IMG/VR virus record: IMGVR_UViG_3300006802_012847
Location: 1-64,000 of that record
DNA: 64,000 bases
Strand: one strand, 5' to 3'
Origin: a virus
This document shows, one piece after another, positions 20,074 to 50,529 of the stretch. Under the pieces are notes generated by a model. That model was not told the origin of the DNA and did not search any database. It was given only the letters and a program-made list of their open reading frames with translations. Numbering within the stretch: position 1 is the stretch's first letter; each line of letters begins with the position of its first letter. A program made the translations under genes and the position numbers.

Positions 20074-20718
20074 ATGGCATATTTAGATAACAACGTAATT
20101 ACGATTAACGCGGTTTTAACCCGAAAAGGGCGTGAAATCCTCGCAAAAACAGGCGGATTGAACATCACTGCGTTTGCATTAGCGGATGATGAAATTGATT
20201 ACACACAATTTAATCCTACTCATCCGATGGGAAGTGCATACTACGATATTGCAATTAGAAATACGCCTGTAATGGAACCTATCACCGATGAATCACAATT
20301 AATGAAGTATAAGTTGGTAACATTAAATGAAGGTGTTACTGCTGTACCTACTATTAGTGTCGCTCAGAGTGTAATTACTATTGACCGTGATTACACAGGT
20401 GAAATTAGTATCAGTCCGAGTACCAATCCAACATATAACGTAACATTAGGATACACTGCTATTTTGGCAAATAAAAATGTAGGAACTTTAGTGGTTACCG
20501 AGACAAACAGTTTGAATTCGACCACGGCTACAGTGCCATCCTTTGCAGGTGATCTTGCTTCGCAGACATCCCAGTCCGTTGTTGGAAATAAATTTAGATT
20601 TGTGCCGAATGCTTCATTAGCAAAAACAACTACGACGAATATTACAATTATTGGCAATGAGAGTGGCGGAAACACATCAATTACAGTAACTGTTAAAGTG
20701 CCTACAACAACAACTTAA
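20074..20718 (+). CDS. tail structural protein, conserved N terminus
   Basis: A 214-residue protein. The N-terminal ~95 residues (YLDNNVITINAVLTRKGREI, LNITAFALADDEIDYTQF) match a short domain common in T4-like aquatic phages next to baseplate genes. The C-terminal half is Thr/Ser/Val-rich with Ig-like beta repeats (TISVAQSVITIDRDYTGEIS). This points to a virion surface protein attached by its N-terminal domain. Function unknown. Confidence 0.6.
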   Translation: MAYLDNNVITINAVLTRKGREILAKTGGLNITAFALADDEIDYTQFNPTHPMGSAYYDIAIRNTPVMEPITDESQLMKYKLVTLNEGVTAVPTISVAQSVITIDRDYTGEISISPSTNPTYNVTLGYTAILANKNVGTLVVTETNSLNSTTATVPSFAGDLASQTSQSVVGNKFRFVPNASLAKTTTTNITIIGNESGGNTSITVTVKVPTTTT

Positions 20719-20726
20719 TTTGAAAT

Positions 20727-21836
20727 ATGATTTTTAGTCAATTTACAACGGATGATATTGTATCAGGTAGAATAAATCAGGTGTCTTCTGGTTTATTTGG
20801 TACCACAGGTAGTTTATATTTAAGTCAATCTCAATTCACCACATCATCTGCATATAATACAGCTCCTACAGGCTCTTCAGCATTTGATGTAAAAAACGGA
20901 CAGTATTATCTAAATGTACAATATAATAGTGAAACATATTTTGCATTAGCATATGGTGATTATGCTAACAGTGGTAGTTCTGAATTTGATGACCCAGATA
21001 ATGCTACAACTGTTTTAACAAATGAAACTAAAGTAATTTATTCGGAATATAAAAATACACTTTTACAACCAAGTGATGATTTATTTTCGTTTGCTTCTGG
21101 AAGTGCTACAACTCCAGTAGATGGTCAACAAATATTCGTGATGAACTTTTCATCCGATAAAATTAAAGATCAATTAGATCCAGGCCAGATTCAAATAAAT
21201 TTAAACGGAACAAGTGGACAGTTTTCATTTATTGATGATTCTCAAGTAATAAATAAACAACAGAGTGTATATAATTTGATTTCTGGTTCTGTAGTTAACG
21301 GAGTTCCTACGCCATATTTGTCAAACGGTAGTCCAGTATATGCTGGGGTTGGACTATTTTATCCATCTCAGGGTGTAGTTATTTTTAATGCTGAAAAAAC
21401 AAATGATATTGTTGGATTTTACCGATCAAGTGATATAGACAGTAGATTATCAAATGCTAGTACTTATGATAACACTAATTCATATGATAAATACTGGAGA
21501 TTGTGGTTTAGATCTTTCTATAAAGCTATTAAATCGTCTACAAAAACTATGGCGGCAAGACGTAGTGAATTTGTACCAAGTACCAATTATTTCGTACGTG
21601 TAAAAAATAAAGAATTTAATTATACAAATAATCCAACATTTGTTTCTGATGGTACGGACGGTAAAACAAAAGGAACAATTATATATCAAGATTTAATTAA
21701 TAATCCTAGAACTTATATTACAAGTGTTGGACTTTATAATGCAAATAATGAGTTAGTCGCTATTGGTAAAATAAGTAGACCGATTCAAAAGAGTTTTGAT
21801 AGTGAATTACTGATTAAGGTTAGATTGGATTTTTAG
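20727..21836 (+). CDS. tail structural protein sharing C-terminal module with the gene at 34123
   Basis: A 369-residue protein. The last ~75 residues (FNYTNNPTF, then TYITSVGLYNANNELVAIGK and ISRPI) resemble the end of the protein at 34123-36714 (YITDVGLYAGADLVAIAKIA, SPI). The rest is Ser/Tyr/Asn-rich with no catalytic motif. It ends TAG immediately followed by TAA, a double stop, and then a stem-loop. Probably a fibre or baseplate-attached protein whose C-terminal module docks to a common partner. Confidence 0.6.
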   Translation: MIFSQFTTDDIVSGRINQVSSGLFGTTGSLYLSQSQFTTSSAYNTAPTGSSAFDVKNGQYYLNVQYNSETYFALAYGDYANSGSSEFDDPDNATTVLTNETKVIYSEYKNTLLQPSDDLFSFASGSATTPVDGQQIFVMNFSSDKIKDQLDPGQIQINLNGTSGQFSFIDDSQVINKQQSVYNLISGSVVNGVPTPYLSNGSPVYAGVGLFYPSQGVVIFNAEKTNDIVGFYRSSDIDSRLSNASTYDNTNSYDKYWRLWFRSFYKAIKSSTKTMAARRSEFVPSTNYFVRVKNKEFNYTNNPTFVSDGTDGKTKGTIIYQDLINNPRTYITSVGLYNANNELVAIGKISRPIQKSFDSELLIKVRLDF

Positions 21837-21937: not shown

Positions 21938-23599
21938 ATGATAAAATTTTTTAAAAATGAAGATGTAATAGTAACACCATTTACTATTGCTAAAGATCAA
22001 GTAGTTAATAGTATATTTGACGATTTGATTGTTGGTAATATTGGTGAAGAAATCTTTCCTATAATATCCCCCGTTACTTTTTGCAATGACAGTTTGTCTG
22101 GAAGTTGTTCATCTTCCTCCATTTCATCCGAATACTATATAGCTGCTAGTCAGTTTGAAGATCCTGTCGGTTTTCAAATTGGAAGATATGTTCCATCTAG
22201 TTCAGTATTTTATCCATCTGGAAGTCAGTATTATAATGCTAATACAAATCCAGTTAATACAGATGGAACTTATCAAAGACAAGTTTATAATACTATTGAA
22301 AAAATGTATTATAATAATTATAACAATGCTTATAATATATTTGGTATAGATGGATTTTATGCCGCAAATATGTCTAGTAGTCTGGTAAATGATATTTCCG
22401 TATTTAATTTAACTATTCCTCAAGCGGGTGATAGAATTAGAACCAATACTTTAAAATTGAATAACCAAACAGGTGATATAGTTGCTGAAATTGTAGATGA
22501 CGGTAATTATAATTTGATTTTATCTGGTTCTTATTTTATCAATAAATATGAATTGAGTAGTGATGCTAGAGATTTAACCACGCCATTGGACGGATGTGGA
22601 TTAGGAGCATATATAAACGATCCTACGGCTGATTTGTCAGATTGTTGTCCGTCTCCTTCTCCTTCTCTAACTCCAAGTGTCAGCGTAAGTGTTACACCAA
22701 GTATCAGTGTTACACCAAGAGTTACACCAAGTGTTACACCAAGTATAAGTGTTACACCAAGTGTTACACCAAGTATAAGTGTAACACCAAGTGTCAGTGT
22801 AAGTATAAGTGTAACACCAAGTGTCAGTGTAAGTGTAACACCAAGTATTAGTGTAACACCAACTATTAGTGTAACACCAAGTATTAGTGAAAGTGGTCCA
22901 CCTGTGCCGCCGGCAAGTCCGAGTGAAAGTGCTCCACCTGTGCCGGTATCACCGAGCGAGACTCCTCCAGTAACACCAAGCACTAGTGTAACACCGAGTG
23001 AGACTCCTCCAGTAACACCAAGTGTCAGTGTAAGTGTAACACCAATTATTAGTGTAACACCAAGCACATCGACTGGTTATTGGACTTATGTATCTTTGTA
23101 TCACTCATTCCCAGATAGTTGTTCAAAGGAACCATCGTGTGTTTATTATCCAGATTGTGATCCATGTTGGGATGAGGATGGTGATCCGCAACCCACCAGA
23201 GAATATTGTGCAGACGGTTTGTGGGAGTTAGAAACTACAATTCAATCACAAATTGGTTTTGAGCAATTTGGCACCGAAGCTTCAACTGCTGATTGTAATA
23301 CAAATGTTTTGGGTCCATGCTCTAATGCATTCGGCAATATGCAATATATTGCTACAATTAAATATGCATATAATTTTAATCCAAGTGATCATTCTGGAAC
23401 AGCAGCAATAACAGTTATAGGCAATGCGCCTGATACAGATTCATTATCGGCATGTTGCACAGGCGACCATGGACTTACAATTGGCATAGTAAACGCCATG
23501 GACTATGTAACACTATTTACTAATATAGCATCGTATGTAGGAAATCCAAATCAATGTGGCGATGGATCTCAAACCTTTCCATATATTGTGGGAATATAA
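21938..23599 (+). CDS. tail protein with mucin-like Ser/Thr/Pro stalk and Cys-rich tip
   Basis: A 553-residue protein in three parts. Residues 1-~225 are a Ser/Asn/Tyr-rich structural domain (SGSCSSSSISSEYYIAAS). Residues ~236-370 are almost only P, S, T and V in repeats of PSISVTPSV. Residues ~375-553 are a Cys-rich globular domain with at least 15 Cys (SFPDSCSKEPSCVYYPDCD). The layout is anchor, extended stalk, disulphide or metal-stabilised tip, typical of an adhesin. The Ser/Thr-rich stalk is a possible O-glycosylation target, and six glycan-related genes follow directly. That link is inference from position. Confidence 0.6.
   Translation: MIKFFKNEDVIVTPFTIAKDQVVNSIFDDLIVGNIGEEIFPIISPVTFCNDSLSGSCSSSSISSEYYIAASQFEDPVGFQIGRYVPSSSVFYPSGSQYYNANTNPVNTDGTYQRQVYNTIEKMYYNNYNNAYNIFGIDGFYAANMSSSLVNDISVFNLTIPQAGDRIRTNTLKLNNQTGDIVAEIVDDGNYNLILSGSYFINKYELSSDARDLTTPLDGCGLGAYINDPTADLSDCCPSPSPSLTPSVSVSVTPSISVTPRVTPSVTPSISVTPSVTPSISVTPSVSVSISVTPSVSVSVTPSISVTPTISVTPSISESGPPVPPASPSESAPPVPVSPSETPPVTPSTSVTPSETPPVTPSVSVSVTPIISVTPSTSTGYWTYVSLYHSFPDSCSKEPSCVYYPDCDPCWDEDGDPQPTREYCADGLWELETTIQSQIGFEQFGTEASTADCNTNVLGPCSNAFGNMQYIATIKYAYNFNPSDHSGTAAITVIGNAPDTDSLSACCTGDHGLTIGIVNAMDYVTLFTNIASYVGNPNQCGDGSQTFPYIVGI
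22666..23070 (+). repeat. PSVTP/SISVTP coding repeat (mucin-like stalk)
   Basis: Repeats of AGTGTAACACCAAGT and close variants over about 400 bp encode PSVTPSISVTP. The antisense strand is also open for 178 codons because of the regular repeat. Confidence 0.85.
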
Positions 23600-23673
23600 C
23601 AAAAATTTATTAAAAAGATTTTTACATGGGTTTTTAATATGTATGAGTAAAATTGAAAGTGTTAATATAAGTT

Positions 23674-26373
23674 ATGACCAATAAAAAAAGTTCTTCTCCA
23701 AAAAAGACTATTAAGAAGTCTGTTCCGAAAAAGCAATCAGTTAAAAAGGTTGTAAAAAAGACAACAAAAGTTGAAAAAACTTCTACGGATAAAATTTTTG
23801 TTCAGATTGCTAGTTATAGAGATCCGCAACTGTTACCTACTTTGCGAGATATGTTTAAAAATGCAAAACATCCAGAAAATATTGTGGTTGCTTTGTGTTG
23901 GCAACATGACGAAAAAGAGTCTTTAGAAGAATTCACCAACGATGTGCGATTTAAGATTATCGACATTCCATATAAACAAGCTAAAGGAGTTTGTTGGGCT
24001 AGAAGTAAACTAAATGAGTTGTATAATGGTGAAGAATATACGATGCAATTGGATTCGCATCATAGGTTTGTTGAGAATTGGGATGAAACTTTAATTTCTA
24101 TGATTAATGGGTTAATTAAAAAAGGACATAAAAAGCCAGTTTTATCAGCTTATATTCCGTCATATGAGCCATCAGATCCATTGCCTGATGAAGGTAAAAT
24201 TCGTGAACCTTGGAAACTAAATTTTGATAGATTTTTACCAGAAGGTCCGGTTGTGTTTAGACCCGCAACAATAGATAACTGGAGAGAAATTGATTCGCCT
24301 GTTCCAGCAAGATTTATGTCTGGTCATTTTATTTTTACATCGGGTCAATTTATTAAAGACATTCCATATGATCCAGATTTATATTTTTATGGAGAAGAAA
24401 TAAGTTTGGCGGTACGTGCATTTACAAGTGGATATGACCTATTTCATCCACATAGATGTGTAGTTTGGCATCAATATACTAGAAAAGGCGCACTTAGACA
24501 TTGGGACGATGATAAAAATTGGAACAAATTAAATAGTAGCGCATATGAAAAAGTCACCGCACTTTTGGGAGTAGATGGCAAAAGAATTGAATTTGAACAA
24601 TATGGGTTAGGAAAAGAAAGAACGTTGGAAGATTATGAGAAATATTCTGGAATTAGGTTTAAAGATAGAGCTGTGCAAAAATATACTTTAGATTTTAATC
24701 TTGCTCCGAATCCAAAATATAAAACTAAAAAAGAATATGAAAACTCTTTCTTAAGAGTGTTTAAGCACTGTCTAGACATTTATGAAGGCGACTTACCAGA
24801 AAAAGATTATGACTTACTGGTTGTAGAATTTAAAGATGACGATGGAAATTCCATTAGATGTGATTTGGGAGAAGAAGAAACGAAAAACACATTAGCTTCT
24901 TCATTAGAAGACCGGTTTTATAGAATATGGAGAACTGCGTATATAGATTTTGTGCCCGAGAGTTTTGTATTTTGGCCTAGAAGTAAATCTAAAGGATGGA
25001 TGAAAAGGATTGAAACTCGTTTGCCTAGATCGAAGATAAAATACTCATCATCTCCAGATAGTTTGTGGGATAAATTTGATGAGTCTAAGAGTTTTACATC
25101 AAAGGGAAATAGAACTAAAAATAAAAGAAAAATATTTTTACATATACCAGCGTATAGAGAGCCTGAATTAATTCCTACTATTGAAAGTGCTATTAAAAAT
25201 GCGAAATATCCTAATAGACTAGTTTTTGGGATATGTCGTCAGTATAACCCAGATGATAAATTCGATGATTTAAGCAAATACGAAAAAGATAAAAGGTTTA
25301 AGATCATCAATATGTTATATACTGAAGCAAAAGGATTACCGTTTGCTAGATATCAATGTAATACTATGATTACAGACGAAGATTATGTATTACAATTGGA
25401 TAGTCATCATAGGTTTGCTGAAAACTGGGATGAGACATTAATAGACATGCACGATGGATTAAAATCAAAGGGACATAAAAAACCTATTATTGGTGGGTAT
25501 CTACCATTTTATCAACCAGAAAATGATCCTGCTGGCAGAGTAAAAATTCCATTTCAGTCAGTTGCTTCATGTTTTTATCCACATGGAACGTTGTTTATAC
25601 GACCAGGCGCATTTGCTCCAGGTGTAGATTTATCTGAACCACCAGCTGCTAGATTTTTATCTGGTCATTTTTCTTTTGCTGATACACATTGGGCAAAAAC
25701 TATAAAACACGATGTTGACATTTATTTCAGCGGTGAAGAAATTAATTTAACAGTTCGATCATTTACACACGGATACGATCTGTTTCACTTAAATAAAACT
25801 GTCATATGGCATGCTATGGAGAGAAAAGAACGTAATGGAATTTTAGTCTGGGATGACCAATGGAAGCGAGGCGATACAGCGTGGACGACAGAACAAGATA
25901 AAGCTAGGGCAAAAATAAGACAGTTACTTAGAACTGAGTATAATGGTTTTGATCTTACTGGATATGATCTTGGTACTGAACGTACAATTGAAGATTATGA
26001 AAAATACTCAGGTTTCAATTTCAAAGAAAGAACTTTCAACAATGAAGCTGTTCAAAATGTTATTCCAGATTTAAACAGAGTTAGTTCGGAACAAAATAAA
26101 TTGAAAAAGTCTTTTTATCATTTAGTAACTATTACAAAGAATGAATTACCAAACAATGATTATAGTAAAATATTAGTTGCTTATGACAATGAGAAAGGTA
26201 TTGGAATTCATACAAGATATATCGAGGGTGAGGAGTTAACACAGTTTACAAGTGGCAAAGCAAATATTCACTACGAAGATTATATGTTTTTAGAAGAATG
26301 GCCAAAACGGGTAGTGTACTGGGGATTTAGTGATTCACGTGGATGGGCTGAACGTGTTGAACAGCTTTTATAA
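23674..26373 (+). CDS. tandem-domain GlcNAc-transferase-like glycosyltransferase
   Basis: An 899-residue protein with a Lys-rich N terminus (KKSVPKKQSVKKVVKKTTK) and two homologous glycosyltransferase domains. Domain 1 (residues ~40-420) shows IFVQIASYRDPQLLPTLRD and MQLDSHHRFVENWDETLI. Domain 2 (~485-899) shows IFLHIPAYREPELIPTIES and LQLDSHHRFAENWDETLI. Both carry the DSH metal/nucleotide-sugar motif and a YGEE/SGEE box of the 'glycosyltransferase (GlcNAc)' family, whose eukaryotic member glycosylates Skp1. Both copies keep their key residues, so two activities or specificities are likely. It is the first gene of the glycan cluster and its stop overlaps the next start. Confidence 0.85.
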   Translation: MTNKKSSSPKKTIKKSVPKKQSVKKVVKKTTKVEKTSTDKIFVQIASYRDPQLLPTLRDMFKNAKHPENIVVALCWQHDEKESLEEFTNDVRFKIIDIPYKQAKGVCWARSKLNELYNGEEYTMQLDSHHRFVENWDETLISMINGLIKKGHKKPVLSAYIPSYEPSDPLPDEGKIREPWKLNFDRFLPEGPVVFRPATIDNWREIDSPVPARFMSGHFIFTSGQFIKDIPYDPDLYFYGEEISLAVRAFTSGYDLFHPHRCVVWHQYTRKGALRHWDDDKNWNKLNSSAYEKVTALLGVDGKRIEFEQYGLGKERTLEDYEKYSGIRFKDRAVQKYTLDFNLAPNPKYKTKKEYENSFLRVFKHCLDIYEGDLPEKDYDLLVVEFKDDDGNSIRCDLGEEETKNTLASSLEDRFYRIWRTAYIDFVPESFVFWPRSKSKGWMKRIETRLPRSKIKYSSSPDSLWDKFDESKSFTSKGNRTKNKRKIFLHIPAYREPELIPTIESAIKNAKYPNRLVFGICRQYNPDDKFDDLSKYEKDKRFKIINMLYTEAKGLPFARYQCNTMITDEDYVLQLDSHHRFAENWDETLIDMHDGLKSKGHKKPIIGGYLPFYQPENDPAGRVKIPFQSVASCFYPHGTLFIRPGAFAPGVDLSEPPAARFLSGHFSFADTHWAKTIKHDVDIYFSGEEINLTVRSFTHGYDLFHLNKTVIWHAMERKERNGILVWDDQWKRGDTAWTTEQDKARAKIRQLLRTEYNGFDLTGYDLGTERTIEDYEKYSGFNFKERTFNNEAVQNVIPDLNRVSSEQNKLKKSFYHLVTITKNELPNNDYSKILVAYDNEKGIGIHTRYIEGEELTQFTSGKANIHYEDYMFLEEWPKRVVYWGFSDSRGWAERVEQLL

Positions 26374-27368
26374 TGGATGAAAATAAAATATTGTTGGAAT
26401 GTTATTTTGCGCCCGCAGCAGGCGCAAATGATTTTTTAGCAGACATTTTTAATTTAATTTTTGATAAACTTAAAATATTATATCCGAAGTTTGAATTCAA
26501 AAATATTCTACCGAATGAAGGAATTTGCGTAATACCACCGAATAATGTATTCGGAAGTTCCGGCGGATTAGTTAGTTTTCAAATTAGAAATCCTATTAAT
26601 AATAAAGTAATATTTCTTAGTTTTTGTGACAGAGGAATAGAATTTAACGAATGTGTGGACGCTTGGGCACCAATGTTAGAAAAATATGAAATAGTTCAAT
26701 ATATAGGCGGGTTGGGAGTATCGTTATCGAATGAAGAAATATATGATAAGTACAAAATAAAAAGATTTAATTTTTTACCATACTTATCTACTGGTAATCA
26801 TCGTGATCTATTTAAGGATTGTATTACTGATTATGATATTGATTCAAAAGAAAGAAAAGTTTGTTTTTTCACATCTTTATATTATCCTAGAACGGAAATT
26901 TGCGATATTTTAGTTAAACATCCACTGTTTGAAATTAAAACATCTAAACGTGATAAATCATATTATGCGGATTTACGAGATAGTGAATATTTTAACGCAG
27001 TATCTAAATTTAGAATGGGTTTAAGTTTAAATGGAGCAGGAGAAGTATCTATAAGAGATTTTGAATATTTCGGTCTTAATATTCCTTGTATAAGACCATT
27101 ATTACTTACTAAATTCTCTCCCGAAATAATTCCAGATATACATTATATTCCATTTGATTTTTGTTCGCCGACTGCAAATCAATATTACAGCCAAAGTAGT
27201 GATGAAATTGCCGATCTTATAATTGATAAGGTTGAAAAAACGATTGATGATGTAGAAAAATTAAAGGCGGTGTCAAAACAAGCAAATGAATATTATAAAA
27301 AATATTTAAACGTACCATATTTAGTCGAATCATTTTTCAAAATTTGCGATCTTGATAAATTAATTTAA
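26373..27368 (+). CDS. glycosyltransferase, exostosin/GT-B-like
   Basis: A 331-residue protein whose start overlaps the previous stop by one base (TAATG). The C-terminal half has the pattern FRMGLSLNGAGEVSIRDFEY FGLNIPCIRP, which matches LSVPGIGELCMRDIEYM..GIPMLR in the proteins at 32163 and 33132. This Gly/Glu-containing segment is like the nucleotide-sugar-binding Rossmann half of GT-B transferases. It ends with EYYKKYLNVPYLVESFF, again like its paralogs. The sugar and acceptor cannot be read from sequence. Confidence 0.65.
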   Translation: MDENKILLECYFAPAAGANDFLADIFNLIFDKLKILYPKFEFKNILPNEGICVIPPNNVFGSSGGLVSFQIRNPINNKVIFLSFCDRGIEFNECVDAWAPMLEKYEIVQYIGGLGVSLSNEEIYDKYKIKRFNFLPYLSTGNHRDLFKDCITDYDIDSKERKVCFFTSLYYPRTEICDILVKHPLFEIKTSKRDKSYYADLRDSEYFNAVSKFRMGLSLNGAGEVSIRDFEYFGLNIPCIRPLLLTKFSPEIIPDIHYIPFDFCSPTANQYYSQSSDEIADLIIDKVEKTIDDVEKLKAVSKQANEYYKKYLNVPYLVESFFKICDLDKLI

Positions 27369-27410
27369 CAAGAATATGACTATATATTATATACAGAAAG
27401 AATTACAATC

Positions 27411-29036
27411 ATGGCAAATATAAGTTTTTACGGATCGCATAACGCTACGTACGTGGTTGAAGAAAATGGGGAAATCCTTATAGTTTTGGAAGTCGAAAGA
27501 TTTTTAAATTACAAAAACTCCGGCATGGCGCAGTATCAGTGTCCTAAAAATTCGGATTTAATATTTTTATCTGAGTATATTCCAGACTTCTTAAAAAGAA
27601 CATTAAACATAAAAGAATTTGATACGTGTTATCACTTAAATACGGATGTTATAATGGATAAAGTGTATCATTTAGAGAAGGGGATTAAAGCAAAAAATTA
27701 TGTGTATGCACTTCATCATGAAGCTCACGCTGCTGGTTGTTTTTATCAGTCTCCATATCAAGATGCTTTAGTATTCAGTTTTGATGGAGGTGGTAATGAT
27801 GGTTTTTTTAATGTTTATTTAGCCAATCGAGAAACTTCTGTTACCCGATTGCAAGAAGTTTTAAATCCTATTGAAAATCATCCACATATACATCACGATA
27901 TAGGATTTCCATACATGATATTTGCTCATTATTTAAAAGATATTCAATTTGAATGTTTAGGTTGGGGCAATTTAGTATATCCAGGTAAAATAATGGGATT
28001 AGCTCCATATGGAAAAGTAAGAGATGAATGGATGGACGCATTCATGCACTTTTATAAGACAAAACCATGTGGTCAAACATATGAGGCAAAGATAAAAGAA
28101 CTTGGAGATAAAATCGGCGTTGTTTTTAACATAGAGAACCGATTCGATGGTGAGTTGGCATATGATATCGCCGCCACTAATCAAAGAGCATTCGAAGAGT
28201 CATTTTTAGAAGTTGCAAAACCGTGGTTAGAAAAATATCCAGATCTTCCAGTTTGCATCGCCGGCGGGTGTGGGCTTAATATTATTCTGAATACACGAAT
28301 CAAGAAAGAATTTAATCGTGATGTATTCGTTGGACCTAATCCAAATGATTGTGGAATTGCTGCTGGTGTACTTCTTCATGTAATCCGACCAAAAGATCCA
28401 GTCGATTTAACATATTCAGGTACAAAACTTTTAGATTTAGATACTATTCCGGCTAGATTACAAAATGATGAATTTTCACATCATTTTACTACACATCACG
28501 TAAATATGGATGAAATTGTTGATGACTTAATTGAAGGTCATATTGTGGGTGTTGCTAGGGGGAGAGCAGAACACGGTCCTAGAGCTTTAGGCAATAGAAG
28601 TATATTGTGTGATCCATCTATACCCGATATGAAAGATACTTTAAACCATAAAGTTAAACATAGGGAATGGTATAGACCGTTTGCTCCGGTGGTTAGATTG
28701 GAAGATGTATCAAAATATTTTGAATGGGAGGGAGAATCTAGATGGATGAGTTTTTGTCCGTTGGTTAAAGAAGAATGGAAAGATAAGCTATCTGCTATAA
28801 CACATGTTGATGGAACTGCTAGAGTTCAAACTGTTACGAGAGAACAGAATGAATTCTTATATGATTTGTTAACTAAATTTAATGAAAAACGTGGTATAGG
28901 AGTTTTATTAAACACATCATTTAATGTAAATGGAAAACCTGTATTGTCTACGGTTGACGACGCATTTAAAATTTTTACAAAAACTGAATTGTCTAGGTTA
29001 TTAATTGAAGATTATTATTTTAGAAAAAATGTATAA
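27411..29036 (+). CDS. carbamoyltransferase, NodU/CmcH family
   Basis: A 541-residue protein, a usual length for the family. N-terminal ASKHA-fold domain: HHEAHAAG near residue 101 (metal-binding His), FSFDGGGNDG near 122, IAGGCGLN near 284. C-terminal YrdC-like part: GRAEHGPRALGNRSILCDP near 382 and REWYRPFAPVV. Family members transfer carbamoyl from carbamoyl phosphate, via carbamoyl-AMP, to a hydroxyl of a sugar or antibiotic. I recall phage members reported to carbamoylate 5-hydroxymethylcytosine in DNA. Here its neighbours are glycosyl- and methyltransferases and no hydroxymethylase is in the window, so a glycan acceptor is as likely as DNA. Confidence 0.92.
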   Translation: MANISFYGSHNATYVVEENGEILIVLEVERFLNYKNSGMAQYQCPKNSDLIFLSEYIPDFLKRTLNIKEFDTCYHLNTDVIMDKVYHLEKGIKAKNYVYALHHEAHAAGCFYQSPYQDALVFSFDGGGNDGFFNVYLANRETSVTRLQEVLNPIENHPHIHHDIGFPYMIFAHYLKDIQFECLGWGNLVYPGKIMGLAPYGKVRDEWMDAFMHFYKTKPCGQTYEAKIKELGDKIGVVFNIENRFDGELAYDIAATNQRAFEESFLEVAKPWLEKYPDLPVCIAGGCGLNIILNTRIKKEFNRDVFVGPNPNDCGIAAGVLLHVIRPKDPVDLTYSGTKLLDLDTIPARLQNDEFSHHFTTHHVNMDEIVDDLIEGHIVGVARGRAEHGPRALGNRSILCDPSIPDMKDTLNHKVKHREWYRPFAPVVRLEDVSKYFEWEGESRWMSFCPLVKEEWKDKLSAITHVDGTARVQTVTREQNEFLYDLLTKFNEKRGIGVLLNTSFNVNGKPVLSTVDDAFKIFTKTELSRLLIEDYYFRKNV

Positions 29037-29041
29037 TACAT

Positions 29042-32000
29042 ATGAATGTTAAAAAAGTTATATCAGATTCGTTAAATTACATAGGAAAAAACCACAACAA
29101 CATATCAGTCATTCAAATTGGTGCTGGCGACGGCACTACATTTGATGATACCAGAGAATATTTAGATAAATATAACTGGGATGCAATATTATTAGAGGCC
29201 AATCCAGAGTTATATCAGGATCTAAAATCCAATTTCAAGGATAGAAACAATTACACGTTTGCCGAAAATATTATTTCAAACAGAAATGGAATGGTGGATT
29301 ACTTAATATTTCCACACAATGCGTTTGATGAAGAAACAGATTTACCAGAGTATAAATATAAATATAAATTTTTAGGATCTTTGTACCCTCTTAAAAATAC
29401 ATTAACAGATGATAACTCGACAAATACTCACTATAGAAATAAATCTAGTAAAGATATTAAAGTTCAATCTCTGACGCTTGAATCATTTTTTGAAAAATAT
29501 TCTGTTAAAAATTTTGATATACTTTTATGTAATCTTCAGGGACATGATTGGACTGTACTTGACCAATTAGATTTAGAAAAATATAAACCTAAGTTTATCA
29601 GATTAGATTATATGAATCTGTCTAATGAACATAGAGAATTAGCTGCGAAAAAACTTAGAGACAATAATTATGAAGTTTTTATTGGAAAAAACATAAATGC
29701 TATTCAGAAAAATTTGTGGAAAGACATTCTTGATTCCGACAATGGTGAAGATCCAATATCATTGACTAATCTATTTAATGAATATGGTACTGATAAAAAT
29801 ATAAGCGAATACAATGTATTATACGAGTCGTTATTTCATGATATTAAAGACAGTTTTAAAAATGTGTTAGAGATTGGGGTTGGAAGCTGTAAACCAAGCA
29901 GTACATGTTTTGCTGGCAATCAAAGAAGGCATCCACATTATAAAGTGGGTGGAAGTTTAAGAGCTTGGAGGGACTATTTTCCAAATGCTTTTATAGAAGG
30001 AATTGATATTGCAGAAGACTGTTTATTCGAAGAACATAGAATTAACTCGTATATTATTAGCTCCATCGATAAAAACCAAGTTGATGAACAATTCGGTGAA
30101 AATGGTAAATATGATTTAATTGTTGATGATGGATTACATACATGTGTTGGTCAATTACAAACTCTTAAAAACTTTTTTCCAAAAGTAAAAGATGGAGGAT
30201 TTTACGTAATAGAAGATTTAGGTGGTGGTGGAGATGCATGCAACCTGTTTATCGATCAAAAAGAAGATGTTGAAGAAGTTATAGGAAACAGTGAGTATTA
30301 CTGGCGTGGAAATATTTTATTTATAAGAAAAACTAACACTGTCAGGCGATGTGTAGATAATGTAAAAGATTTATTAACACCATTGAATGTGTCTGAAAAT
30401 GTTGATTCTACGGTTGAACAATCTATAGATGTAGTTGAGACTGTTGATGATAAGCCTAAAGATGAAAATGATTCGGATTTAACTGTTGTAACAGGTCTTT
30501 GGAATATAGGTCGTTCTGGTCGTTCATGGGATCATTATGTAGAGTCATTTCAAAAATTACTGGCTATGCCGCAGAAAATGTTCATTTATATTTCAAAAGA
30601 ACATGAACACTTAGTATGGGAAAAACGAGAAAAGCATAACACATTTGTAAAAATATATGAATTAGAAGATGTTAAAAATTTATATAGTCCATTTTGGGAA
30701 AAAACTCAAAATTTAAGAACAAGTGACGAATGGTTAAATATTACCGGTAAAGATGGTTGGTTAAAATTATCTCCACAAGCAACTTTAGAATGGTATCTCC
30801 CAATTGTTCAATCTAAAATGTTTTTATTGAATGATGTTACTATTTGGAATCCATTTCAAACAAATCATTTTATTTGGATTGATGGTGGCATAACTAATAC
30901 AGTATGGGACAAATATTTAGTAGAAGATAATGCACTTAGTAATATTACTAAGTATTTAGATTCATTTTTATTTCTAAGTTATCCATATTCAAATGCTGGC
31001 GAAATTCATGGGTTTAAATCGGATGATATGAACCGATATGCGAGCGTTAACAAAATTGAATACGTGTGTCGAGGAGGTTTATTCGGTGGTACTAAAGAAG
31101 CAATCAATGAGGCTAATAGAACATATTACTCAACATTGATGAGTAGTTTATCAGAAGGATTAATGGGAACCGAAGAAAGCATATTCACAATTATGTCATA
31201 TGCTGAACCAGATAAATATAATAGATATATGTTGGAAATAACGGGCCATATTTTGAAATTTATAAAAGCTATGCTCGATGACAATGTTGAAATGGTTAAA
31301 GTTGTTAATCGTAGATCATTGGATCATGTTCCAGCATCTGTTGTATCTATAAAAGATTTGAAAATGTCTTTATATATGTTGTCATTTAATTTCCCACAAC
31401 AAGTCGAAAGCACTATTAAGACTTGGTTAAAACATCCTAAATGGATTAAAGATACAAGAAATATTTTAATTGATAACTCCACTAACCAAGATGCCATAGA
31501 AAAAAATGAAGAGTTATGTAAAAAATATAATTTTGAACATATAGTCACAAACAAAAATTTAGGAATTAATGGTGGTAGGTTTTTAGCAGCAGAGCATTTT
31601 CAAAATTCTGATAGCGATTATTATTTGTTTTTGGAAGATGATATGGAAATTTGTGCTCCAGATAATAACGGATTTTGTAGAAATGGTTTCCGACGATATG
31701 TACCAGATTTATACAGTAAAGTTTTAAAAATCTTAGAAGGTGATGATGTAGATTTCGTAAAACTATCTTATACTGAGGTATATATGGATAATAATATTCA
31801 AGTGTCGTGGTACAATGTTCCACAGAGAGTCAGAACAGCTCAATGGCCTTATTATGATAAATTGCCTATTAGTGGCCTTGATAAAAATTGTCCAAGAACA
31901 AAGTTTGACACTATTGAAGTAATAGATGGATTATCTTATATCAAAGGACAAATTTATTATGCTAACTGGCCAATGGTGGTTGGTAAAAAAGGAAACCAAA

Positions 32001-32173
32001 AAATGTTTTTAGATATTACATGGGCTAATCCATACGAACAAACTTGGATGAGTCAAATGTATCAAGATACCGTCTCTGGCAAATTGAAACCTTCTGTTTT
32101 ATTAGCTAGTCCTATTAATCACAATAGAATTGTTTATTACAAGCCAGAAGAAAGAAAAGAAAATGCAGGATGA
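29042..32173 (+). CDS. four-domain protein: FkbM methyltransferase, second methyltransferase, two glycosyltransferases
   Basis: A 1043-residue protein. Residues 1-~230 are an FkbM-type SAM methyltransferase (VIQIGAGDGTTFDDTREYL, LLEANPELYQDL, FDILLCNLQGHD). Residues ~240-440 are a second class I methyltransferase like macrolide sugar O-methyltransferases (VLEIGVGS, SLRAWRDYFPNAFIEGIDIA, YDLIVDDGLHTC). Residues ~478-740 resemble the HtrL/YibB/WlaTC glycosyltransferase family (TVVTGLWNIGRSGRSWDHY, FIWIDGGI). Residues ~775-1043 are a GT-A domain (LYMLSFNFPQQVESTIKTWL, YLFLEDDMEI). An acidic linker joins domains 2 and 3. One polypeptide would both extend and O-methylate a glycan, perhaps capping it. 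Start ATG 29042 is 5 bases after the carbamoyltransferase stop. Confidence 0.8.
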   Translation: MNVKKVISDSLNYIGKNHNNISVIQIGAGDGTTFDDTREYLDKYNWDAILLEANPELYQDLKSNFKDRNNYTFAENIISNRNGMVDYLIFPHNAFDEETDLPEYKYKYKFLGSLYPLKNTLTDDNSTNTHYRNKSSKDIKVQSLTLESFFEKYSVKNFDILLCNLQGHDWTVLDQLDLEKYKPKFIRLDYMNLSNEHRELAAKKLRDNNYEVFIGKNINAIQKNLWKDILDSDNGEDPISLTNLFNEYGTDKNISEYNVLYESLFHDIKDSFKNVLEIGVGSCKPSSTCFAGNQRRHPHYKVGGSLRAWRDYFPNAFIEGIDIAEDCLFEEHRINSYIISSIDKNQVDEQFGENGKYDLIVDDGLHTCVGQLQTLKNFFPKVKDGGFYVIEDLGGGGDACNLFIDQKEDVEEVIGNSEYYWRGNILFIRKTNTVRRCVDNVKDLLTPLNVSENVDSTVEQSIDVVETVDDKPKDENDSDLTVVTGLWNIGRSGRSWDHYVESFQKLLAMPQKMFIYISKEHEHLVWEKREKHNTFVKIYELEDVKNLYSPFWEKTQNLRTSDEWLNITGKDGWLKLSPQATLEWYLPIVQSKMFLLNDVTIWNPFQTNHFIWIDGGITNTVWDKYLVEDNALSNITKYLDSFLFLSYPYSNAGEIHGFKSDDMNRYASVNKIEYVCRGGLFGGTKEAINEANRTYYSTLMSSLSEGLMGTEESIFTIMSYAEPDKYNRYMLEITGHILKFIKAMLDDNVEMVKVVNRRSLDHVPASVVSIKDLKMSLYMLSFNFPQQVESTIKTWLKHPKWIKDTRNILIDNSTNQDAIEKNEELCKKYNFEHIVTNKNLGINGGRFLAAEHFQNSDSDYYLFLEDDMEICAPDNNGFCRNGFRRYVPDLYSKVLKILEGDDVDFVKLSYTEVYMDNNIQVSWYNVPQRVRTAQWPYYDKLPISGLDKNCPRTKFDTIEVIDGLSYIKGQIYYANWPMVVGKKGNQKMFLDITWANPYEQTWMSQMYQDTVSGKLKPSVLLASPINHNRIVYYKPEERKENAG

Positions 32174-33113
32174 CATCACAGTTTATTATAAGCCGTGCGA
32201 TCAAATTCACATGTGGTGGGGACTTCACCATATACTAAAATCATTGGTTGATTATTTAAAAGACAATAAGAATGCTAATGTAATTGAAAAAGATGAATTT
32301 GTATACAACAATCGTTCTTATAAAGTTAATGATAGCCACTGTCTTATTTATAATAAACAAAAAGATTCATATACACTTATCACATTCACGGACCAACAAT
32401 GTGAATTAATTTGTTTTCTTAATGCACGAAATAATCCGAATGATACATTAGTTTGTTCACAACTGTCCAAAACAAATGTATTTGATATTCCTAGAAATTA
32501 TAAAATCGTGCCGAATATTTACGCTGTGAGTCGTGCGTTCATGATATACGATGATCCAGTAGATTTACTTTATGAAAAACGATTGTTGAGAAAATCGCAA
32601 AGTGGATTTTTAGACAAATTGTTATTCAGAGGAAATTGTGCTATAAGTGGATGTGATAGAAGAGCAGTTCTATTATTGACAGGTCAACATGATTTTGTTG
32701 GCTGGGAGCCTAACGATACATACTTTACCAAAGATTTAATATCATATTCTGTTGGTTTATCTGTTCCCGGAATTGGAGAATTGTGTATGAGAGATATTGA
32801 ATATATGTCAGTAGGTATTCCGATGTTGAGATTTAAATATATTAGAGAAGAAACATTGAATCCCAGTTTGGTGCCTAATTATCATTATATTAGTATAGAC
32901 AGAATGGATAACGATGCAACTATTGAACGTACAGCCGGAAATGGACTAAATCCACTTAACTATAGTTTAAAATATTTGGAGAAGTTTAATGAGGTTAGAA
33001 AAGATCTGGACTTTTTAGAGTATATTTCTAAAAATGCTAGAAAATATTATGAAGATTACTTGCATCCAAATACGAGATTGAATCACCTTTTGAAGATATC
33101 AGAGTTAACATAA
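32163..33113 (+). CDS. glycosyltransferase, paralog of the next gene
   Basis: A 316-residue protein. ATG 32163 (MQDDITVYYKPCDQIHMWWG) is preferred over the in-frame TTG 32130, and overlaps the previous stop by 11 bases. Motifs: LLFRGNCAISGCDRRAVL and LSVPGIGELCMRDIEYM followed by GIPMLRFKYI, then NPSLVPNYHYISIDRMD. It is very similar along its length to the gene at 33132 and distantly to 26373. The Gly-rich segment fits a GT-B nucleotide-sugar site; 'exostosin-like' is the nearest family I can suggest. Confidence 0.65.
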   Translation: MQDDITVYYKPCDQIHMWWGLHHILKSLVDYLKDNKNANVIEKDEFVYNNRSYKVNDSHCLIYNKQKDSYTLITFTDQQCELICFLNARNNPNDTLVCSQLSKTNVFDIPRNYKIVPNIYAVSRAFMIYDDPVDLLYEKRLLRKSQSGFLDKLLFRGNCAISGCDRRAVLLLTGQHDFVGWEPNDTYFTKDLISYSVGLSVPGIGELCMRDIEYMSVGIPMLRFKYIREETLNPSLVPNYHYISIDRMDNDATIERTAGNGLNPLNYSLKYLEKFNEVRKDLDFLEYISKNARKYYEDYLHPNTRLNHLLKISELT

Positions 33114-33131
33114 AATTCTATATTTTTAATA

Positions 33132-34064
33132 ATGTATCATGGTTTAGAAATATATTATAATATAAGTGAAAAAATCCTTTTACAGCCGTATGGATTTCAT
33201 TCGCTTATATGTGAATTTGTACAATATTTTCAGAATAAAGAAGGTGTTAATATTATTAATACCAACATTTTTTCTTATGGTGGGAATGAATATGATGTTG
33301 ATCCCTGCAATATTTTGGTTTTTAACAAGTTTAAAAATTCATATACACTAATTACATTTGTGGATTGTCAGTGTCAGTTGACATCATTTTTAAATTGGCG
33401 TGATAATTCAAATGATAAACTTGTATGTGCTCAGCTACAGATGACAGATGTTCTTTCTAAACCACATAAATATAAAATAATACCAAACACGTATTCGGTT
33501 AGTGATCAGTTTATTATATATGATGATCCAATAGATTCATTATATGAAAAAAGAAGTAGTAAAAAACATTTTAATAATAAATTATTATTTAGAGGAAATT
33601 GTTCATTAATAGGATGTGATAGACGACCTATATTAATGTTATCGGGTATGCCAGATTTTGTTGGATGGCACGGCACCTCAGAATATTGGAATGAATTAAT
33701 AGAATGTTCTATAGGTTTATCTGTTCCCGGAATTGGAGAATTGTGTATGAGGGATATTGAATATATGGCAATTGGAATACCAATGTTGAGATTTAAATAT
33801 ATTGGGGAAACATTGAATCCTAGTTTGGTGCCTAATTATCATTATATTAGTATAGATAGAATGGATAACCACCCTGATATAGAAAGAACAGGTGGAAATA
33901 ATCCAGCAGAATATGCCCTCGTTTATTGGAATAAATTTAATGAAATTAAAAAAGATTTAGATTTTTTAGAGTATATTTCTAAAAATGCTAGAAAATACTA
34001 CGAAGATTATTTACATCCATCTACTAGACTAACACATTTTTTAAAAATAACAGAATTAGATTAA
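33132..34064 (+). CDS. glycosyltransferase, tandem duplicate
   Basis: A 310-residue protein, tandem copy of the preceding gene. The shared core LSVPGIGELCMRDIEYM is identical, and the C-terminal block FLEYISKNARKYYEDYLHP is identical too. The N-terminal third differs more, where acceptor specificity usually lies in GT-B enzymes. A TATTTTT motif (33121-33127) lies 4 bases before the ATG, one mismatch from the late motif. It closes the glycan cluster. Confidence 0.65.
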   Translation: MYHGLEIYYNISEKILLQPYGFHSLICEFVQYFQNKEGVNIINTNIFSYGGNEYDVDPCNILVFNKFKNSYTLITFVDCQCQLTSFLNWRDNSNDKLVCAQLQMTDVLSKPHKYKIIPNTYSVSDQFIIYDDPIDSLYEKRSSKKHFNNKLLFRGNCSLIGCDRRPILMLSGMPDFVGWHGTSEYWNELIECSIGLSVPGIGELCMRDIEYMAIGIPMLRFKYIGETLNPSLVPNYHYISIDRMDNHPDIERTGGNNPAEYALVYWNKFNEIKKDLDFLEYISKNARKYYEDYLHPSTRLTHFLKITELD

Positions 34065-42084: not shown

Positions 42085-45000
42085 ATGCCAATACAAGAAG
42101 GTGGAAGATTCAGTCCAACACAAAATATAGTGAGTCCAGGCGTATTTACACGCGAAAACGACTTATCGGGGCTAGCACAAGGCGTAGCCAACATAGGAGG
42201 GGCAATTGTGGCGCCGTTTGCTGACGGTCCCGCGTTTTACCCCAATATTATAACAGACGTAGCAACTTTAGAACAACGATTCGGTTTAGCCGATGGAATT
42301 TACTACGGTCCATATACAGCAAAAGAATATTTGTTGCAACAAGGTATTGTGACAATTGTTCGTGTAGGTGGATTAACTGGTTACTGGCAGAAAAACCCAC
42401 TAGTGGTTTATGCCCAACCAGGTGAATGGGATAGAAGTTCGGACATAGGAGCGTTAACAACAGCGTCCTTTATGTACTTAAATAGTGATGATTATACCAC
42501 TAATATTCAATATGTACATAGTTCGTCCGCGTATGAAATTTCAGCATCTACATCAGTTCACAGAACCGGTTCATTATCTGGTGTGGGATGTACAGGTCAA
42601 TTAACTACGTTGTCCGAAATTTCTTCCTTTTTGGGATCTAATTCTGGCCTACCGTCAATTAATAATTTATCTGCTTCATTAGCAGCTGCATATGGGGATC
42701 GTAAATTAGTATCATTGACAAGTATTCAAGCTTATACCGCATTTTCTGCATCTGTTGTTGCAGGTGGTAAAAAAGTTGGAACTACTTCCGACTACACACT
42801 TGCTTGGTGGGATGTTAATAAAACAATTCCATCTGGTTCATTGTATGAATCTGGAAGTAATGGTTCAAGTACTATTGGCATTAATTCTACACTTAATGGT
42901 ACTTACACTCCAGGCGGTGGAAAATCATTTAGTGCTGGATCTGGTTCATATCTGACTGCTTCGGTTATTATGACCACCTCTGGACAAATTAAATGGCCAT
43001 TTGTGTTTGTCAATAATGCTGTTTCAACTGGAGTTACTGTAACTTCTTATGTGAATAATGCAGAGGCACAACCAACTGGAAGTAACTTTAGAGTTATTTC
43101 TTCGTATGATAACTCATCTATGGTGTTTAGTGGAAGTATCAATGCTAGATTTGGTCCAAAAGGAGCTACTAGTGGATATCCATCATCTTATAATGGAGAA
43201 GGAGCTAGTTTAAGTGGAAGTAAATTATATTACAATAAACAAGTTTCTTTAGGTACTGTTAAAACTGGAATGTTGGCAAGGTCATTCGATGGGGTAAGTT
43301 TACCATCATGGGCTGCTGGATATCATTATTTATCCTCCAGTGTTCAAGGATCGGATACTGATGAAGAAACACAAATTGCAACAGCAATTGCAGAAAGTAC
43401 AGAAACTACTTACTTATTATCTTGTAGTGTTCTTAATGTAGGAAGTACTACTTCTCAACTCTCATTGACATACGATCAAGATACATTTGATGCTACTAGT
43501 ACATTATACATAAAGTCTGGTAGTTTCACTGCTGTTCGTAGTGCCGCAACTTGTGGTGCTGGTTTAAGATTCTTAGGTATAATTAACGGTGAATATGGTC
43601 CATTTGCTGGAACATTTACTGCTAGTGATGCCGGATTAAATGATCCATGTAATCCAGTAACTGATGTACGTAAACCAATGGTATTATCTGTATTAGCAAA
43701 TACCCAAAATGCTTCTACGCAATTTGGAACAGATTATACAGTTAATGGGTTTGCAACTTCAACCATTAGTCAACAAACTAGTTCGGTATTTCCATACAAT
43801 GGAGGCGTTAATCCTACAGAGAATGATTATCAATTAGTATTGAAGTATAACTACACTGACACAGAAGATAATACTTTTGCTGGCACTTATGGTTATTATA
43901 ACTTTAGTTTAAATGAAAGTGATAATAACTACATTAAAGATGTATTTGGTATGATTGCTACTGTTGGTAATCCTGCTAAACAAATTGCTGGACAAAAAGT
44001 TGAAGCAGCTTACAACTATGTATTGTTTGAAGATTCTATCAAACGATTCTTAGCTGAGAAAACTAGACCTTCGGCTGAAGGTGGTGGTTGGCAGTTAAGA
44101 GTTGCTTCAGTGCCATCTGCTTCGTTCTCCACAGGCGAATCTATGAAGTTTGTTGATCAATATTCATATGATCCAAATAGCGGTGACTCACAGTTTGCTA
44201 TCACAAATGCAAAAACACCATGGATTTATTCTCAAAAGGTATCTCCATTCAAGGGTAGTGCTGATGAAGCTGCTAAACCAACCAAATTCAAATTATTTAA
44301 AGTTCACACATTAAGTGATGGTACTTTAAGTAATAAGAAATATAAGATTGAAATTAGTAACGTTAAATTAGCAGGCACAGTTCCAGGTAGTGATTGGGGT
44401 ACATTCACACTTGCTGTACGTGCTTATAGTGATACTGATAAGAGACCTAAGTATTTGGAAATCTTCCAGAACTTAAATCTAAACCCAGACAGTGCTAACT
44501 TTGTTGCACGTAGAATTGGTGATAGATATTCTTATATTACGTTTGCTGGCAAGATCATAGAATTCGGTACTTATGCTAATTTGAGTAAGTATATCAGAAT
44601 TGAAATGACTGACGTTGCTTATCCAGATATTGTTGTTCCTTATGGATTTGAATCATACTATGCTCCGGTAGACGGAACAATGAGTACATTGTTACCTGCT
44701 GTAAGATATAGTAAGGCTTCTATCTTCGGATTGTCGCCTGGTAAATATCCATCTGGTACTGTGTTTGGTGAGGTTCCAGAAGCATCTGACGAACTTGCTT
44801 CTCTATATCCTACATCTTCGTTTGGTGTTGGTGTTGAAAATGACACTAAGAATTGGTTTAAACCACTTCCAACTTATGGTGGTGCTGATCAAAATGGTGA
44901 CAACATTGACTTCAGTTTGGAAGATAAATCTTATGGAGGAGGAACTAGTGGATATTATGGACAAGGTGTACCAGCAAGTACAGGTTCTTTACTTGCTCCA

Positions 45001-46154: not shown

Positions 46155-46898
46155 ATGAAGAATATTAAAAAAATCTGTGAATGGACTGGTCAAGAATTTT
46201 ATGTTGATTTTAAACATAGAAATCAAAGATTTATAGATAAAAATGCAATGTATACTTGGCGAAAAAATCAAAATAGAGAAACTGTTAAATGTTTAAAATG
46301 TGGAAACGAATTTGAAAGATATAAAAATATATTACATCCAAAAAGCGGAAAACCCACACAATATTGTTCCAATGAATGTAACAGAACGTCCGATGAAAAA
46401 CGAGAAAAATTAAAAAAATGGGCAAATTCAAACAGTAATCATTGGTTTAATAAAAAGTGTCAATCTAAAGTAAAATTGACAAAACTTGAAAAATACGGAG
46501 ATGAAAATTACAACAATACAGAAAAGTCAATAGAAACTTGTTTATCTAAATATGGTGTTCCGTATACAGTTTATTTACCACATGTTAGATCAAATGGCAA
46601 AACCATATCTAAATTTCAAAAAAGAATTTATGATGAGGTTAAAAAAGAATATTCGGATGCTTTATTAGAAGAATATCTGTCGGATATAAATAAATCGGTC
46701 GATATTTATGTTCCTTCAAAGAAACTAATAATAGAATGTTTTGGTGATTATTGGCATTGTAATCCAAACGTATATAAACCAGAATACTATCATAAAAATG
46801 TTAAGTTAACAGCTAAACAAATTTGGGATAGAGATAATGAACGAATTGAACATTTCAAAAAACTCGGTTATGATATAAAAATAGTTTGGGAATCATAA
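46155..46898 (+). CDS. free-standing homing endonuclease, Vsr-like (EDxHD) fold
   Basis: A 247-residue protein. The N terminus has a zinc-finger pattern (VKCLKCGNEFERYK, QYCSNECNR). The middle has short repeats typical for DNA-recognition modules (KLEKYGDENYNNTEKS, CLSKYGVPYTVY). The C-terminal ~90 residues (VDIYVPSKKLIIECFGDYWH CN, IWDRDNERIEHFKKLGYDIK, IVWES) show the very-short-patch-repair-like nuclease fold with E, D, H. Such genes spread between phages by cutting an allele that lacks them. It lies between terminators and promoters of the sheath and next genes, a typical place for a free-standing element. Confidence 0.7.
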   Translation: MKNIKKICEWTGQEFYVDFKHRNQRFIDKNAMYTWRKNQNRETVKCLKCGNEFERYKNILHPKSGKPTQYCSNECNRTSDEKREKLKKWANSNSNHWFNKKCQSKVKLTKLEKYGDENYNNTEKSIETCLSKYGVPYTVYLPHVRSNGKTISKFQKRIYDEVKKEYSDALLEEYLSDINKSVDIYVPSKKLIIECFGDYWHCNPNVYKPEYYHKNVKLTAKQIWDRDNERIEHFKKLGYDIKIVWES

Positions 46899-50483: not shown

Positions 50484-50529
50484 TTTTTTTAAAAATACTT
50501 ATATAATTTTGATATTAGAATAAAATATA

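What the first reader, a model, noticed from the sequence alone, without database searches (positions are those of the whole stretch)
21938..34064. Phage-encoded glycan cluster directly behind a mucin-like tail protein
Six consecutive genes encode two GlcNAc-transferase-like domains, three related GT-B-like transferases, a carbamoyltransferase, two methyltransferases and two further glycosyltransferase domains. They follow immediately on a tail protein whose 130-residue stalk is almost only P, S, T and V. The parsimonious hypothesis is an O-glycan made by the phage on its own virion stalk, then capped by methyl and carbamoyl groups. This would be an undescribed virion-glycosylation system. Alternatives are DNA hypermodification or host surface modification.
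Basis: inference. Interest (0 to 1): 0.85.

Follow-up and report, generated by a model that had tools for sequence, protein, structure and literature searches.

The report
Phage mucin-like tail stalk glycosylation cassette
This uncultivated T4-like phage carries, right behind a mucin-like tail-region protein, a set of sugar-attaching enzymes that probably coats that protein with a decorated sugar chain, and the same pairing recurs in many unrelated phages.

Summary
Six genes (23674-34064) encode two PF11397 (GT60-type polypeptide-GlcNAc-transferase-like) domains, three related GT-B enzymes, a TobZ-type carbamoyltransferase, an FkbM and a second methyltransferase domain and two GT-A domains. 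They follow a protein with a 142-residue stalk that is 93% P/S/T/V/I.

In 67 non-redundant phage loci around this GT, the gene immediately upstream carries a P/S/T-rich stalk in 27 of 65 cases and the gene immediately downstream in none. Other large ORFs of the same loci score 8%, random viral ORFs 0.2%. The adjacent stalk proteins fall into 16 unrelated groups, so a composition is shared, not a gene family. In reverse, 17 of 50 stalk-bearing records hold the GT, against 0 of 50 random ones.

The only isolates found (XacN1, CM1, RAS14) share the cluster; in XacN1 and RAS14 it accompanies a TP-rich giant tail-region protein. XacN1 is reported to contain at least two glycoproteins.

Thymidylate-synthase-type genes, 2OG oxygenases and membrane proteins are rare or absent, which disfavours DNA hypermodification, hydroxyproline and host-surface models. 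Best reading: phage-encoded mucin-type O-glycosylation of a tail stalk. Glycosylation itself is not shown.

The parts
21938..23599 (+). Stalk protein (553 aa): conserved N-terminal part, P/S/T/V stalk, Cys-rich C-terminal domain; proposed acceptor
   Evidence: ORF; homologue in L013 42% identical over full length with a different stalk sequence of the same composition
22646..23071 (+). Mucin-like stalk, residues 237-378, 93% P/S/T/V/I
23674..26373 (+). Fused tandem GT60-type (PF11397) glycosyltransferase, proposed initiator on Thr/Ser
   Evidence: Pfam E 5e-122; two domains at 23782-25020 and 25114-26367; alignment A1 with invariant DSH-R-F and GEE motifs
26373..27368 (+). GT-B-fold glycosyltransferase 1 (same family as 32163 and 33132)
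27411..29036 (+). O-carbamoyltransferase (TobZ/GdmN/NodU type), proposed glycan cap
   Evidence: Pfam; PDB matches to O-carbamoyltransferases, best E 5e-51
29042..32173 (+). Four-domain protein: FkbM methyltransferase, second methyltransferase, HtrL-type GT-A, second GT-A
   Evidence: the double GT-A part occurs in 48 of 66 GT60 loci
30476..32164 (+). Tandem GT-A half of 29042 (HtrL_YibB plus second GT-A), the second conserved element of the cassette
   Evidence: A4, 34 sequences; AlphaFold2 pLDDT 90; Foldseek to LH3, COLGALT1, K4 chondroitin polymerase
32163..33113 (+). GT-B-fold glycosyltransferase 2 (ORF listed from TTG 32130)
33132..34064 (+). GT-B-fold glycosyltransferase 3, 60% identical to 32163
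   Evidence: AlphaFold2 pLDDT 87, pTM 0.88; Foldseek
20074..21836 (+). Two conserved structural-region genes (20074, 20727) that precede the stalk gene here and in L013, L024, L051, L393, L423
34123..36714 (+). FG-GAP repeat structural-type protein that closes the cassette here and in L013
   Evidence: Pfam FG-GAP_2 E 1e-11

Best explanation
The cluster is a phage-encoded, cytoplasmic, mucin-type O-glycosylation cassette for the phage's own tail stalk. The tandem GT60-type enzyme (23674) puts a first sugar, probably alpha-GlcNAc from UDP-GlcNAc, on many Thr/Ser of the P/S/T-rich stalk of 21938. The double GT-A enzyme (C-terminal half of 29042) and the three GT-B enzymes extend it. The FkbM and second methyltransferase domains and the carbamoyltransferase cap it. 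The GT60 and double GT-A enzymes are the conserved frame and the genes between them vary between phages, so phages would change the virion glycan while keeping the attachment chemistry. The product would be a stiff, hydrated, glycan-coated stalk on the tail. Shown: the genes, families, folds, adjacency and recurrence. Inferred: that the stalk is the acceptor, the sugars and linkages, that 21938 is in the virion, and the benefit.
For: (1) Enzymology by family: characterised GT60 enzymes attach GlcNAc to polypeptides; T. cruzi TcOGNT1 makes GlcNAc-alpha-Thr in mucin-like surface proteins (PMC9472816), Toxoplasma Gnt1 acts on Skp1 (PMC6939170). (2) Position: over 67 non-redundant loci a stalk lies at gene position -1 in 27/65 and at +1 in 0/65, with 0-14% at the other positions from -8 to +10; 26/66 against 43/511 other large ORFs, p 5e-10. 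(3) Random viral control: stalks in 1/411 large ORFs and 2/117 loci, no GT60. (4) Reverse: 17/50 stalk records have GT60, 0/50 random; in a Pfam scan of 59 genes downstream of stalks PF11397 is the commonest family and the only glycosyltransferase. (5) 31 upstream stalk proteins form 16 unrelated groups after masking. (6) L393, L397 and L423 carry stalk and GT60 genes in alternation. (7) Many of 150 cassette genes match glycan families: FkbM, GT25, GT10, GT34, GT7, O-methyltransferases, carbamoyltransferase, UDP-galactopyranose mutase, sulfotransferase. (8) XacN1 and RAS14 share GT60, carbamoyltransferase and the double GT-A gene plus a TP-rich 3100-3300 aa protein next to the baseplate genes; XacN1 has at least two glycoproteins. 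(9) Enzymes look soluble: no predicted membrane segment in the cluster, 1 of 150 cassette genes.
Against: No glycan, acceptor or donor is demonstrated. The identity of the XacN1 glycoproteins is not given in the main text. About a third of GT60 loci have no stalk in view; of 16 such records fetched wholly or mostly, 3 had one elsewhere. One GT60 clade (L027, L033, L040, L076, L083) lacks local stalks. GT-B matches are fold-level only (TM about 0.5 or lower). Membership in GT60 rests on Pfam PF11397; no characterised GT60 sequence was compared directly. The second GT60 domain sits on a very long branch. The stalk records and the random records differ in size.
Confidence: 0.72

Rival explanations
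1. DNA hypermodification: the carbamoyltransferase and glycosyltransferases decorate hydroxymethylated bases, as in T4 or the 5-hydroxymethylcytosine carbamoyltransferase phages.
For: A phage carbamoyltransferase acting on 5hmC is proven, in contigs that also encode thymidylate-synthase-type enzymes (PMC8670742). Virus-encoded GTs that modify DNA with diverse glycans are known (cited in PMC12619734). 4/50 GT60 records and 2/30 carbamoyltransferase records have a PF00303 gene.
Against: No PF00303 match in the own 100 kb record. The PF00303 hits in other records lie tens of kilobases or more from the cluster. The same paper reports carbamoyltransferases next to glycosyltransferases in unmodified contigs. 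DNA modification does not explain why the gene at -1 encodes a P/S/T stalk.
Confidence: 0.06
2. Host-surface modification: the cassette alters host LPS, capsule or S-layer glycoprotein to exclude other phages.
For: HtrL_YibB, GT25 and FkbM families also occur in bacterial surface-glycan loci (established knowledge). The same gene set exists in a Bacteroidetes genome, Jiulongibacter sediminis (L429).
Against: No predicted membrane segment in the six genes and 1 in 150 cassette genes, so no Gtr-type flippase or polymerase and no lipid carrier enzyme. The genes sit inside the structural region and follow the stalk gene. In Jiulongibacter too the cassette lies beside a TP-rich stalk gene.
Confidence: 0.07
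3. Hydroxyproline-linked glycosylation as on Skp1: prolines of the stalk are hydroxylated first and the GT60 enzyme acts on hydroxyproline.
For: Toxoplasma Gnt1 of GT60 requires hydroxyproline (PMC6939170); stalks are 19% Pro.
Against: Only 2 of 47 GT60 records have a 2OG-Fe(II) oxygenase of PF13640 and the own record has none. Thr is the commonest residue of the stalks (35%). A host enzyme or another oxygenase family is not excluded.
Confidence: 0.05
4. The cassette glycosylates a different virion protein, and sits near the stalk gene only because both are variable cargo of the tail region.
For: About a third of GT60 loci have no stalk in view; XacN1 shows at least two glycoproteins.
Against: Large ORFs of the same +-10 kb carry stalks in 8% of cases against about 41% at -1 and 0% at +1. 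Stalk and GT60 genes alternate in L393, L397 and L423.
Confidence: 0.1

Closest known systems
T. cruzi mucin-type O-glycosylation by GT60 TcOGNT1/2
   Same: PF11397/GT60-type enzyme together with Thr-rich mucin-like proteins; further sugars and caps added
   Different: Eukaryotic Golgi enzyme acting on a cell-surface protein; here a soluble, fused or tandem phage enzyme and a tail-region protein, with predicted methyl and carbamoyl caps
Virion glycosylation in mycobacteriophages (Freeman et al. 2023)
   Same: Phage-encoded glycosyltransferases acting on virion proteins
   Different: There the glycans are at C-termini of capsid and tail-tube subunits (as cited in PMC12619734); here a P/S/T stalk and a cassette of about ten domains. 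The mycobacteriophage enzymes were not compared here
Xanthomonas phage XacN1 glycoproteins (ORF334 region)
   Same: Homologous GT60, carbamoyltransferase and double GT-A genes, TP-rich giant protein; at least two glycoproteins detected
   Different: Jumbo phage; cluster on the opposite strand from the tail genes; single GT60; the acceptors are not named in the main text
Serine-rich adhesin glycosylation (GtfA, SdgB)
   Same: Cytoplasmic O-glycosylation of low-complexity Ser-rich stalks; the GT-B model matches these folds
   Different: Different initiator (GT-B instead of PF11397); secreted bacterial adhesins; no sequence homology shown
5-hydroxymethylcytosine carbamoyltransferase phages
   Same: TobZ-type carbamoyltransferase in a phage
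   Different: No thymidylate-synthase-type gene in this record; neighbours are glycan genes

Membership tests
GT60 / PF11397 polypeptide GlcNAc-transferases | Significant match to the PF11397 profile | tested here: met
   E 5e-122, 408 bits against a cut-off of 21
GT60 / PF11397 polypeptide GlcNAc-transferases | Conserved putative catalytic motifs retained | tested here: met
   DSH-R-F, GEE and WDD motifs invariant in both window domains and six relatives; that they are catalytic is not shown
GT60 / PF11397 polypeptide GlcNAc-transferases | UDP-GlcNAc donor, Thr/Ser or hydroxyproline acceptor | not testable with these tools
   No solved relative by sequence; needs an enzyme assay
Phage virion glycosylation systems | Phage-encoded GTs linked to a virion protein gene | tested here: met
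   Gene -1 enrichment and reverse test; virion location of the stalk protein is inferred from gene context
Phage virion glycosylation systems | Glycan demonstrated on a virion protein | not testable with these tools
   Glycoproteins reported for XacN1 (PMC5852040), acceptor not named there
DNA base hypermodification (5cmC/5hmC type) | Thymidylate-synthase-type hydroxymethylase in the genome | tested here: not met
   0 matches in the 100 kb record; the record may be incomplete
DNA base hypermodification (5cmC/5hmC type) | TET/JBP oxygenase | tested here: inconclusive
   No match, but the control did not ring anywhere
O-carbamoyltransferases (TobZ/NodU) | N- and C-terminal carbamoyltransferase domains | tested here: met
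   PDB matches to novobiocin enzyme, GdmN, TobZ
Gtr-type serotype conversion | Membrane flippase and membrane GT | tested here: not met
   No segment above 1.6 on a 19-residue hydropathy scale in any cluster protein
Skp1-type hydroxyproline glycosylation | Prolyl hydroxylase partner | tested here: not met
   PF13640 absent from the own record, 2 of 47 records including it; other oxygenase families not tested

The most novel reading that the evidence does not exclude
A widespread, exchangeable glycan-serotype system of tailed phages: stalk genes paired with dedicated GT60 initiators (fused in tandem here), framed by a double GT-A enzyme, with a variable middle that lets phages change the methylated, carbamoylated or sulfated sugar coat of their tail stalks; a sister system occurs in Bacteroidetes.
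Probability: 0.45. Interest if true: 0.87.

Novelty: new variant of a known kind. Interest (0 to 1): 0.76.

Why it matters
It would be a prokaryotic-virus counterpart of mucins: low-complexity Thr/Ser/Pro stalks whose sequence drifts while composition is kept, coupled to their own initiating enzyme. At least 577 viral stretches encode a relative of the enzyme, so it may be a common and overlooked layer of phage surface chemistry, relevant to adsorption, particle stability and recognition. Cultivated phages with the cluster exist, so it is directly testable now.

Tried and rejected
Close-relative search with the GT-B protein 33132 in viral contigs found nothing; relatives came instead from GT60 loci. 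tblastn of 26373 and of the stalk protein in isolated phages: none. Sequence search of solved structures with the GT60 and double GT-A profiles: none. PF12851 search uninformative because the control did not ring. Literature searches for phage GT60 or mucin-like tail proteins found nothing relevant; the library holds only openly licensed papers, and the Freeman 2023 paper was not held. A hydroxyproline model was considered and set aside. The bacterial GT60 set is a poor control: many members are GC-rich with unrelated low-complexity ORFs (7 of 65 upstream stalks).

Full report
Observation. The window is bases 1-64000 of a 100,318-base IMG/VR virus record. It is T4-like: Gp23 capsid, T4 portal, T4-type terminase, tail sheath, gp6-like wedge, with gp32, RecA-like, DnaB and ribonucleotide reductase genes in the rest of the record. 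The six genes and the stalk protein are as described. The likely start of the 32130 gene is ATG 32163. The stalk is far outside the range of the other proteins of the window: best 130-residue P/S/T/V fraction 0.88 against 0.48 for the next.

What the enzymes are. 23674 has two PF11397 domains. Characterised members of the corresponding CAZy family GT60 put GlcNAc on polypeptides: T. cruzi TcOGNT1 on Thr of mucin-like proteins (PMC9472816), Toxoplasma Gnt1 on hydroxyproline of Skp1 (PMC6939170). The equation of PF11397 with GT60 is from my own knowledge. The three GT-B proteins form one family with an invariant RD and HY pair and a near-invariant C and E; the AlphaFold2 model is confident (pLDDT 87) and Foldseek puts protein O-glycosyltransferases (SdgB, POGLUT1, GtfA) among its best matches, TM about 0.5 or lower; a profile search also gives POGLUT1 weakly (E 0.03). 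The C-terminal half of 29042 is modelled at pLDDT 90 (pTM 0.58) and matches two-domain GT-A enzymes (LH3, COLGALT1, K4 chondroitin polymerase). 27411 matches solved O-carbamoyltransferases.

Co-occurrence test. An alignment of the GT60 domain (A1) found at least 577 related viral stretches, of which 80 were fetched, besides 8 found with the window protein alone. After removing near-copies (90% identity or more), 67 loci remained, the window included. A stalk was defined as a 50-residue stretch with at least 60% P+S+T, 15% P and 25% S+T; the cut-offs were set after a first look at eight loci and then kept for all sets. Result: 43 of 67 loci have a stalk within the fetched stretch; the immediate upstream gene is a stalk in 26 of 66, against 43 of 511 other ORFs of 250 aa or more in the same loci (Fisher p 5e-10). 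The position profile is sharp: -1 27/65, +1 0/65, -2 8/58, others at most about 11%. In random viral loci, drawn with an arbitrary 14-mer, 1 of 411 large ORFs and 2 of 117 loci have a stalk and none has GT60. In the reverse direction, 17 of 50 records picked by a stalk DNA pattern encode GT60 against 0 of 50 random records (the stalk records are larger, but not enough to explain 17 against 0). Of 59 genes immediately downstream of such stalks PF11397 is the commonest Pfam family (6) and the only glycosyltransferase.

Not one gene family. With the stalks masked, the 31 stalk proteins within 3 kb upstream fall into 16 groups with no detectable similarity between groups. On the GT60 tree stalk presence needs 13 changes against 20 in shuffles, so it is clustered but was gained or lost repeatedly. 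Between the window and its nearest relative L013 the stalk protein is 42% identical over its full length, while the stalk has changed from SVTPSISVTP-type to SLTPTPSLTATPS-type repeats: composition is kept, sequence is not.

Architecture. The double GT-A gene is in 48 of 66 GT60 loci and in no random locus. The genes between vary: among 150 of them are FkbM, GT25, CmcI-type O-methyltransferase, GT10, GT34, GT7, carbamoyltransferase, UDP-galactopyranose mutase and sulfotransferase families. Loci found through the carbamoyltransferase instead of GT60 also have GT60 (21 of 35), the double GT-A gene (17 of 35) and stalks (10 of 35), often with two adjacent GT60 genes, of which the window's enzyme is a fused form. 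In L393, L397 and L423 the order is stalk, GT60, one or two further stalks, GT60. The same cassette stands beside a TP-rich protein gene and a second GT60 in the Bacteroidetes Jiulongibacter sediminis (L429).

Isolated phages. Only XacN1, CM1 and RAS14 in 50,697 phage records have a relative. XacN1 and RAS14 carry GT60, carbamoyltransferase and double GT-A genes in one cluster, and a 3313/3138 aa protein next to baseplate wedge genes with a TP-rich stretch near its C-terminus. The XacN1 paper reports at least two glycoproteins and suggests its own GTs (ORF328, ORF334) as the cause (PMC5852040). This is independent experimental support, although the main text does not name the proteins.

Rivals. 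DNA hypermodification needs a hydroxymethylated base; PF00303 is absent here, present in 4 of 50 GT60 records and in 2 of 30 carbamoyltransferase records, tens of kilobases or more from the cluster in each. The proven 5hmC carbamoyltransferase co-occurs with such genes (PMC8670742). Host-surface modification is disfavoured by the lack of membrane proteins. Hydroxyproline glycosylation is disfavoured by the rarity of PF13640 oxygenases. That the true acceptor is another virion protein remains the strongest rival.

Mechanism, with what is shown and what is inferred. Shown: gene content, families, folds, adjacency, recurrence. Inferred: GT60 starts O-glycans on Thr/Ser of the stalk in the host cytoplasm during late infection, GT-A and GT-B enzymes extend, methyl and carbamoyl groups cap. 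A dense coat would stiffen and hydrate the stalk, and a variable cap could change how the particle is recognised. No step of the chemistry has been demonstrated.

Verdict.

Noticed in passing
window 51742-54762: T4-like portal gene (Portal_T4 residues 441-824) interrupted by an intein (Intein_splicing 97-438, E 1e-17) with HNH and NUMOD3 motifs.
   Followed up: partly
window 49635-51717: Large terminase appears split into two ORFs (49635-50483 N-terminal ATPase, 50530-51717 C-terminal part), with an HNH-type gene at 46155-46898; possible split gene or intron.
   Followed up: no
L003:18535-19317 (record end, outside the window): A second TPSVSV-type stalk protein, cut by the record end, directly after a DruA-like gene (L003:17301-18506, PF14236 E 5e-23).
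   Followed up: no
L429:3948-11151 (Jiulongibacter sediminis): Bacterial copy of the cassette: GT60, carbamoyltransferase, FkbM plus double GT-A, divergent from a TP-rich stalk gene followed by a second GT60. It suggests a bacterial protein glycosylation system, possibly the source of the phage one.
   Followed up: partly
L393, L397, L423: Stalk and GT60 genes alternate before the carbamoyltransferase, as if each stalk had its own initiator.
   Followed up: partly
window 42085-46062: Tail sheath protein of 1325 aa whose sheath domains match only from residue 1016 on; about 1000 extra N-terminal residues.
   Followed up: no
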